The translations under genes and the position numbers were made by a program. The notes under the pieces were generated by a model that saw only the letters and a list, made by a program, of their open reading frames with translations, did not search any database and was not told the origin of the DNA. A DNA stretch of 64,000 bases from Natronomonas sp. CBA1123 (GTDB lineage: Archaea > Halobacteriota > Halobacteria > Halobacteriales > Haloarculaceae): assembly GCF_009741925.1 (NCBI RefSeq), contig NZ_WPCC01000011.1:1-64000 (forward strand), in the 5' to 3' direction. This document shows, piece after piece, positions 63,137-64,000 of the stretch (the stretch's first letter is position 1; each line of letters starts with the position of its first letter).

Positions 63137-63221
63137 GCGCGGGTTGCCGAGCTAGGCCAAAGGCGCAGCGCTTAGGACGCTGTCCCGTAGGGGTCCGCCG
63201 GTTCAAATCCGGTCCCGCGCA
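63137..63221 (+). tRNA. tRNA-Leu (anticodon UAG)
   Basis: An 85-nt tRNA. The acceptor stem GCGCGGG pairs with CCCGCGC; the anticodon stem CAGCG/CGCTG encloses the loop CTTAGGA with anticodon TAG, reading CUA leucine codons. A long variable arm (TCCCGTAGGGGTC) identifies a class II tRNA. The T-arm is CCGGTTCAAATCCGG. No intron is visible. The final A (63221) is templated; CA-end addition completes it. Confidence 0.92.
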
Positions 63222-63265
63222 TGAGCGAACGCAGTGAGCGAAGAGCAGGGTCGATTCGAACCCTG

Positions 63266-63373
63266 GAAACCGAGCGAAGCGAGGTTTCATCCGGTTCAAA
63301 TCCGGTCTCGCGCATAGCGAGGTGCGAGCGGAGTGAGCACCTCAGAACTCGAACGGCGAGCGAAGCGAGCCGT
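63266..63373 (+). repeat. Three hairpins with different stems and a common 11-nt loop
   Basis: Hairpins at 63266-63288 (GAAACC/GGTTTC), 63319-63343 (GAGGTGC/GCACCTC) and 63353-63373 (ACGGC/GCCGT). Loops are GAGCGAAGCGA, GAGCGGAGTGA and GAGCGAAGCGA. A related GAGCGAACGCAGTGAGCGA follows the tRNA at 63223. Between the tRNA gene and the beta-helix gene. Confidence 0.65.
63291..63315 (+). repeat. Partial copy of the tRNA-Leu 3' end
   Basis: CCGGTTCAAATCCGGTCTCG plus CGCAT repeats positions 63198-63222 (T-arm and 3' acceptor strand) with one mismatch, 93 bp downstream. It resembles an att remnant of an element once integrated in this tRNA, or slippage duplication. Confidence 0.65.
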
Positions 63374-63390
63374 GAGGTGCGAAAACGTTC

Positions 63391-64000
63391 TTATGACGTG
63401 TTGGGGTCGAACGGCTTCGGGAGTTTCGTCTCCTCGCCTTTGTCGACAATCGGTTCGGCCCATCCCGAGATGGCGTTTCTGATGAGTTTGGTGTTCTCGG
63501 CGGACGGGTAGAGGACGATGCCCATATCGCCATCCACTGCCGTAATCGTGTTTTGCCGGACGCCGCTGTTGGTCGTTTCGAGTGCGAACACTCCCGCATG
63601 GAAGGCGTCGTCGTCTCCGGGGTCCTCCTCGGTGACTTCGATGGTGTTGTGGAGGACGTTGTGTCGGTTCCCACCCCACAGGGCGATGCCGGCATCGTTG
63701 TCGGTGACGCTGTTTCGCTGGATGTTCACGCTATCCCCTGGCTGGTAGAGGATGATTCCCGACGACTGGAAGTCGTCCAAATCCCACCAGTGGTCTGCGA
63801 CGGTGTTGCCACGGATTCTCGCGGTCGCACCACCACCGATTTGGATTCCGTTTTCGGCCCACCCGTCCGATTTCGGCCCTAGTCCCGTGATTTCGTTATC
63901 CGAAATGTCGACATCCGTGTCACCACCGGTTGCTAGGATAGCGACCCTGTGTCCACCATTCAGCGTGTTCGATTCCACCGCACCGGTGGCCCCATCGGCG
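63391..64000 (-). CDS. Right-handed beta-helix (NosD/periplasmic copper-binding-like) protein, 5' end outside window
   Basis: The C-terminal 203 codons of a minus-strand gene that continues past the right edge. Parallel beta-helix repeats are evident: VDISDNEITGLGP, ARIRGNTVADHWW, VNIQRNSVTDNDAGIALWGG, HNVLHNTIEV, SGVRQNTITAVDG and TKLIRNAISGW, each with the NxxxxN turn typical of NosD/PbH1 repeats. Such proteins are secreted and often bind or modify surface polysaccharide. The tail ends DKGEETKLPKPFDPNTS. The frame stays open at the window edge. Confidence 0.75.
   Translation of the reverse strand, partial: ADGATGAVESNTLNGGHRVAILATGGDTDVDISDNEITGLGPKSDGWAENGIQIGGGATARIRGNTVADHWWDLDDFQSSGIILYQPGDSVNIQRNSVTDNDAGIALWGGNRHNVLHNTIEVTEEDPGDDDAFHAGVFALETTNSGVRQNTITAVDGDMGIVLYPSAENTKLIRNAISGWAEPIVDKGEETKLPKPFDPNTS

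What the first reader, a model, noticed from the sequence alone, without database searches (positions are those of the whole stretch)
63223..63373. Array of hairpins with variable stems but a constant 11-nt loop
Three hairpins downstream of tRNA-Leu have unrelated perfect stems (6, 7 and 5 bp) and the loop GAGCGRAGYGA each time. Keeping the loop while changing the stem by compensating bases is unusual; it suggests a loop-recognising protein or a replication/transposition mechanism that rewrites flanks as inverted copies.
Basis: seen in the sequence. Interest (0 to 1): 0.66.

Follow-up and report, generated by a model that had tools for sequence, protein, structure and literature searches.

The report
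Haloarchaeal hairpins with self-folding caps
Salt-loving archaea carry dozens of intergenic hairpins whose arms vary but stay paired, under a fixed 11-letter tip that itself appears to fold into a known ultra-stable DNA mini-hairpin; here two sit in a small removable unit stuck to a tRNA gene and two in a repeated pair.

Summary
In detail: three hairpins (stems 6, 7, 5 bp) with loop GAGCGRAGYGA follow tRNA-Leu, plus a fourth at 63223-63241. It is not chance, but the "constant loop" is neither constant nor unpaired. Model-free scans show one grammar: Y-GA-[NC]-GNA-[GN']-GA-R, with tandem G·A mismatches, two pairs (the outer one covarying G-C/A-T/C-G) and a GNA triloop closed by C-G. That core, d(GCGNAGC), is the published hyperstable DNA mini-hairpin. 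The own genome has about 78 copies at E<=0.01; the family is nearly class-wide (114 of 116 haloarchaeal genomes). Copies are intergenic (46/50), often between convergent genes, with no strand preference; stems change by compensatory substitution, and arrays gain, lose and invert units between close relatives. It is REP-like but lacks the GTAG/CGTC tag and a Y1-transposase neighbour. The window array is two modules: a ~93-bp unit flanked by a copy of the tRNA 3' end (precisely absent in a close relative; related units follow many tRNAs, matches in 53 of 57 family genomes), and a two-hairpin doublet. Most likely role: a strand-specific hairpin element recognised or stabilised through its cap. 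DNA versus RNA action is unproven; a T-tract subclass looks terminator-like. Protein and mechanism of spread are unknown.

The parts
63137..63221 (+). tRNA-Leu gene; its last ~25 nt (63198-63222) is the first copy of the direct repeat
   Evidence: ARAGORN, Rfam RF00005 E 3.8e-9
63223..63241 (+). HP0: GA-GC-GA-AC-[GCA]-GT-GA-GC-GA, alternating tandem G.A and 2-bp steps with a GCA triloop, no longer outer stem
   Evidence: sequence; ortholog L085 has GTA in the triloop and the rest unchanged. The thermodynamic predictor does not choose this fold: inferred from the grammar
63253..63266 (+). inverted T-arm-like arm GATTCGAACCCTGG of the tRNA-end unit
   Evidence: folds against the second tRNA-end copy; not specific to its own tRNA
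63266..63288 (+). HP1: 6-bp stem + cap GAGCGAAGCGA
   Evidence: 32.0 bits; folds as ((((((..((...))..)))))) with RNA and DNA parameters
63291..63315 (+). second copy of the tRNA-Leu 3' end (CCGGTTCAAATCCGGTCTCGCGCAT); unit period 93 bp
   Evidence: absent, with the whole unit, in relative G117 (L083)
63319..63343 (+). HP2: 7-bp stem + cap GAGCGGAGTGA (first hairpin of the REP-like doublet)
   Evidence: 29.0 bits; in G117 the cap is GAACGGAGTGA, the inner G.T being A-T
63350..63376 (+). HP3: C-GA-ACGGC-[GAGCGAAGCGA]-GCCGT-GA-G, second tandem G.A below a 5-bp stem (second hairpin of the doublet)
   Evidence: (35.9 bits); identical in G117

Best explanation
The array belongs to a REP-like family of intergenic hairpin elements found across nearly all haloarchaea sampled. 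Each element has a free, compensated stem of about 5-9 bp and a cap 5'-GA-NC-GNA-GN'-GA-3' closed by a Y-R pair. The cap most likely folds as two tandem sheared G.A pairs stacked on a C(GNA)G DNA mini-hairpin, which makes only the GA-bearing strand fold well. I think the elements act mainly as structured DNA: when the strand is exposed or the duplex is supercoiled, the cap nucleates a stable foldback that is either bound by a cap-recognising protein or is itself the functional feature (boundary or topology element between transcription units). Copies spread and are replaced by recombination between copies. At tRNA genes a longer foldback version appears as a ~95-bp unit that duplicates the tRNA 3' end, as an integration unit would. 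Shown: grammar, covariation, intergenic bias, class-wide spread, copy gain and loss. Inferred: sheared geometry, the DNA level, protein recognition, the mechanism of spread.
For: Grammar: with GA/GA over a stem of at least 5 bp, inner stem 2 + loop 3 gives 51 cases against at most 6 for every other inner-stem/loop size; 46 of the 51 loops are GNA. This set is enriched for the query loop, but among 30 cases excluding it 22 are still GNA and 27 of 30 close with C-G. Rediscovered without a model in G118, G009 and G067, not in G028 (2 cases), with 2 in 0.55 Mb of bacterial control DNA. Covariation score 0.96 vs 0.19 in shuffles, no shuffle reaching it. DNA-specific rule: 'GNA or GNNA loop and at least two G-C pairs', Tm 78 C for GCGAAGC (PMC4686876). 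Class-wide: 114/116 genomes, dropping to 0-7 hits in other classes of the phylum. 46 of 50 hairpins with stem >=4 intergenic; 31 islands: 14 convergent, 6 antisense-only, 5 sense-only. A second tandem GA below the stem in 12 of 50, all among the 16 5-bp stems. Orthologous hairpins that align change mostly at the triloop N, the outer pair or in compensated pairs. Island dynamics 7/2/1/0/0 hairpins across five relatives; 36-bp unit gain or loss.
Against: No experiment: folding, geometry and level of action are untested. ViennaRNA gives the fold more energy as RNA than as DNA and does not credit sheared G.A in DNA. 12 of 50 hairpins have TTTT within 35 nt on the 3' side, against 2 on the 5' side, which suggests RNA termination for that subclass. 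GNNA loops, also reported as hyperstable DNA, are not enriched, so stability alone is not the whole rule. No candidate binding protein or mobility enzyme was found. Conservation estimates come from alignments that pass through the hairpin, which favours conserved ones.
Confidence: 0.58

Rival explanations
1. They are RNA elements: transcription terminators, 3'-end stabilisers or processing sites; the cap is a stable RNA loop in the 3' UTR.
For: Intergenic, often just after stop codons (within ~9 nt in L028, L033, L039) and between convergent genes; 12/50 with a 3' T-tract; hairpins were found upstream of 503 of the mapped termination sites in Haloferax and one hairpin gave 59% termination (PMC7237163).
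Against: By island, orientation in co-directional regions is balanced (5 sense-only, 6 antisense-only, 1 both); most elements, including all in the window, lack a T-tract on the GA strand; the triloop rule is GNA, not the RNA tetraloops GNRA or UUCG; no Rfam match except the tRNA.
Confidence: 0.27
2. Mutational by-product: the hyperstable mini-hairpin causes template switching in replication, so quasi-palindromes are perfected around it and stems are copied, without function.
For: Stems unrelated in sequence under one cap; one hairpin core is inverted in place in G117; several simultaneous compensating changes at L036 and L046.
Against: A templating mechanism does not explain the tandem G.A rule, the Y-R closing pair or the covarying inner pair; 46/50 are intergenic; the simultaneous change at L046/L307 equals another family copy; tRNA-unit arms are not copies of their own tRNA.
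Confidence: 0.1
3. Bacterial-type REP elements mobilised by a Y1 (IS200/IS605, RAYT) transposase, or PATE-like remnants of such elements.
For: Size, intergenic position, doublets and arrays resemble REPs/BIMEs; Y1 genes exist in the genus; PATEs with near-terminal palindromes are known in Haloquadratum (PMC3119063).
Against: No capped hairpin within ~1.5 kb of any of 20 Y1 matches (0 in 64 kb), though only ~1.4 would be expected at background density; GTAG within 12 nt of the stem in only 6 of 50, CGTC in 0.
Confidence: 0.1
4. Chance loops in GC-rich DNA or a low-complexity artefact.
For: The 11-mer alone is only moderately over-represented: 281 vs 132 for the reversed pattern in G118.
Against: Stems and covariation, class restriction.
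Confidence: 0.02

Closest known systems
d(GCGNAGC) extraordinarily stable DNA mini-hairpins (Hirao, Yoshizawa)
   Same: Cap core is N-C-GNA-G-N', closed by C-G, with all four bases seen at N; the published rule is GNA/GNNA with at least two G-C pairs (PMC4686876)
   Different: Here natural, repeated genomically, extended by tandem G.A and a variable stem; the outer of the two inner pairs may be A-T; GNNA not enriched
REP/BIME repeats (GTAG and CGTC superfamilies; PMC3733652)
   Same: Short extragenic palindromes, tens of copies, doublets and arrays, compensated stems, copy-number variation between strains
   Different: No GTAG/CGTC tag, class-wide cap of fixed structure, no RAYT/Y1 neighbour found
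PATEs and SMRs of Haloquadratum (PMC3119063)
   Same: Haloarchaeal, non-coding, small, palindrome-bearing repeats
Integron attC sites / archaeal tRNA attachment sites
   Same: The tRNA unit is an imperfect foldback next to a tRNA end and duplicates that end (works like an att site)
   Different: No integrase or gene in the unit; no recombination shown; resemblance only

Membership tests
REP (GTAG/CGTC superfamilies) | 20-40 bp palindrome, intergenic, high copy | tested here: met
   78 places at about E<=0.01 in the own genome; 46/50 intergenic
REP (GTAG/CGTC superfamilies) | GTAG or CGTC tag beside the stem | tested here: not met
   6/50 and 0/50 within 12 nt upstream of the stem
REP (GTAG/CGTC superfamilies) | linked RAYT/Y1 transposase | tested here: not met
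   none within ~1.5 kb of 20 Y1 matches in the genus; a distant RAYT cannot be excluded
d(GCGNAGC) DNA mini-hairpin | C-G-closed GNA loop on at least two pairs | tested here: met
   46/51 GNA; inner second pair C-G; rule from PMC4686876
d(GCGNAGC) DNA mini-hairpin | measured hyperstability of the molecule | not testable with these tools
   needs melting/NMR
Intrinsic (U-tract) terminator | T-tract 3' of the hairpin on the transcribed strand | tested here: not met
   12/50 only; none in the window array on the GA strand
Known RNA family | Rfam match | tested here: not met
   only tRNA
Integrated element at tRNA | direct repeat of the tRNA 3' end and a precise empty site | tested here: met
   G117 lacks exactly the unit; 15/15 tRNA-linked loci carry 18-22/22 copies of their own tRNA end, control mean 12.7-14.9 and max 17
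Integrated element at tRNA | encoded or cognate integrase | not tested
   unit too short to encode one; no search for a trans-acting integrase

The most novel reading that the evidence does not exclude
Haloarchaea possess a dedicated system that recognises folded single-stranded DNA through a tandem-G.A/GNA mini-hairpin cap, using it both for dispersed boundary elements and for integron-like, gene-less units inserted in tandem at the 3' ends of many tRNA genes.
Probability: 0.15. Interest if true: 0.87.

Novelty: new variant of a known kind. Interest (0 to 1): 0.62.

Why it matters
A hyperstable DNA fold known mainly from oligonucleotide chemistry appears as the fixed part of a natural repeat family across nearly a whole archaeal class, with an exact grammar that makes DNA-versus-RNA action and protein recognition directly testable. 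The linked tRNA-end units (matches in 53 of 57 genomes and 22 of 22 genera of the family) would be an unusual small mobile element. No description was found in the open-access library, so these sites are probably unannotated or translated as spurious Arg/Ser/Glu-rich peptides.

Tried and rejected
The reversed-pattern control was discarded (mirror-symmetric motif); one search uses a valid one. Exact 15-mer scans of genome contigs and viral contigs: hits are scattered; outside haloarchaea most have only the stem built into the query, with a few real-looking exceptions (Halpernia, Soonwooa, a Thermoleophilia MAG). Y1 transposase link: negative. Replication-strand bias: weak clustering of orientation in G117 (runs 13 vs 18.4, P 0.043), not pursued. 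'Inverted arm copied from its own tRNA': rejected. L050/G118 as an ortholog pair: not counted, short alignment likely paralogous. L253/L315: misalignment, ignored. Literature searches with the motif letters gave only unrelated oligonucleotides.

Full report
WHAT IS THERE. The window end holds tRNA-Leu (63137-63221) followed by four hairpins before a convergent beta-helix gene (Pfam Beta_helix). HP0 (63223-63241) reads GA-GC-GA-AC-GCA-GT-GA-GC-GA. That it is a haloarchaeon is inferred: GC-rich sequence, a TFIIB-domain protein, and the doublet's only plasmid match, in Halorientalis (locus read).

IT IS NOT CHANCE. Loop matches in the window: 3 vs 0.51 expected. Of about 63 loop sites extracted from the genome, about 26 have perfect stems of 5 bp or more. 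Without assuming the loop, it is the top long loop and GA/GA is the top 2x2 mismatch over stems.

THE LOOP IS A FOLDED CAP. Independent stretches of four other haloarchaeal genomes give GA/GA 10, 17, 9 and 2 times; in three of them it is the commonest mismatch type (tied with its complement), in G028 it is not; 0.55 Mb of bacterial DNA gives 2. On 37 hairpins the named structure has covariation 0.96 vs 0.19 in shuffles and at most 0.21 when slid; these were selected for stems >=5 and for the fixed GA, C-G and GNA letters, so the evidence there lies in pair identity, not in pairing itself. From established work (PMC4686876, read) GNA loops on at least two G-C pairs are extraordinarily stable DNA mini-hairpins (GCGAAGC, Tm 78 C). 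Tandem 5'-YGAR-3' G.A pairs are known to be sheared and stable in DNA and RNA (own knowledge). The sheared geometry here is inferred.

WHERE IT OCCURS. A covariance model finds about 78 places at E<=0.01 and 129 at E<=10 in the own genome, matches in 114 of 116 genomes of the class (counts are lower bounds because only 69 candidates per genome were scored), and 0-7 in other classes of the phylum. Of 50 hairpins with stem >=4, 46 are intergenic by a simple codon-usage gene finder. By island: 14 convergent, 6 antisense-only, 5 sense-only, 1 both, 3 divergent, 2 open-ended, so there is no gene-strand preference. A T-tract lies 3' of 12 of 50. In 12 of the 16 5-bp stems a second GA/GA lies below the stem, as in HP3.

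HOW IT EVOLVES. Against G118, the L036 copy differs by two double changes that keep both pairs, one inside the 'loop'. Against G117, L046/L307 differs by two double changes, G.T>G-C and the free triloop N, but the new version equals another family copy, so copy-to-copy replacement is likely. Orthologous hairpins that align are often identical, with most changes at the triloop N, outer pairs or compensated pairs; alignments through the hairpin favour conserved cases. The island in L044 holds 7 hairpins; G117 has 2, G118 has 1, G119 and G121 none, and one core is inverted in place in G117. A 36-bp unit is gained or lost in L070/G118.

TWO MODULES IN THE WINDOW. HP0+HP1 lie in a unit of period 93 bp between the tRNA 3' end (63198-63222) and a copy of it (63291-63315). 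G117 joins the tRNA end directly to HP2-HP3 and so lacks exactly this unit; G119 and G121 carry diverged versions; G118 has other DNA after the tRNA; L088 has two units in tandem. A 68-nt relative of the unit core matches 53 of 57 genomes and all 22 genera of the family, up to 11 places per genome. Of the 20 best loci, 15 have a tRNA called nearby (Ser, Val, Arg, Gly, Leu, Phe, Tyr), and in all 15 the last 22 nt of that tRNA recur downstream, 18-22 matches vs a control mean of 12.7-14.9 and maximum of 17. The second copies are tRNA-specific, the inverted T-arm-like arm is not. So the unit looks like a dispersed element that duplicates its tRNA target, not a fresh inverted copy. HP2-HP3 form the REP-like doublet seen elsewhere in the genome (L022, L033, L039, L058, L070) and kept in G117 with the HP2 inner G.T as A-T.

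MECHANISM. I favour strand-specific structured DNA because the triloop rule is the DNA rule, gene orientation is neutral and RNA tetraloops are absent. RNA action remains possible, more so for the T-tract subclass. Protein recognition is inferred from the strictness of the cap and from GNNA loops not being enriched. Known systems that read DNA hairpins (phage N4 vRNAP promoters, IS200/IS605, attC) show that such recognition exists (own knowledge); membership in none of them is claimed.

NOVELTY. REP-like in behaviour, but without the tag and without a linked Y1 gene. No paper in the open-access library describes the motif; subscription papers were not searchable.

Noticed in passing
63198-63315: tRNA-Leu 3' end duplicated around a ~93-bp hairpin unit; related units follow many different tRNA genes across the family, sometimes in tandem (L088).
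   Followed up: partly
L024, L035, L037, L041, L043, L046, L068: A larger conserved multi-hairpin element with GCATCCGCG...GGTTC and TTTTTCCCCA(C/A)GTTTTTG tracts carries capped hairpins; may be a terminator-like or mobile element.
   Followed up: no
L103, L162 (Halpernia), L124 (Soonwooa): AT-rich Flavobacteria carry the same 11-nt core in stems (GGCGC[GAGCGAAGCGA]GCGCC, with A/T tracts in Halpernia); looks like a bidirectional terminator with the same cap.
   Followed up: no
L135, L148, L159, L169: Rhizobiales repeats of the type ATCCTGAGGTGC-GAGCGAAGCGA-GCCTCGAAGGAT seem to follow the same tandem-GA grammar.
   Followed up: no
L044 4145 region vs L324 (G117): The core of one hairpin is inverted in place between close relatives while its 9-bp arms are unchanged.
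   Followed up: partly
63221-63511 +: Open frame through the array (MSERSERRAGS...) is a likely source of spurious Ser/Glu/Arg-rich annotations.
   Followed up: no
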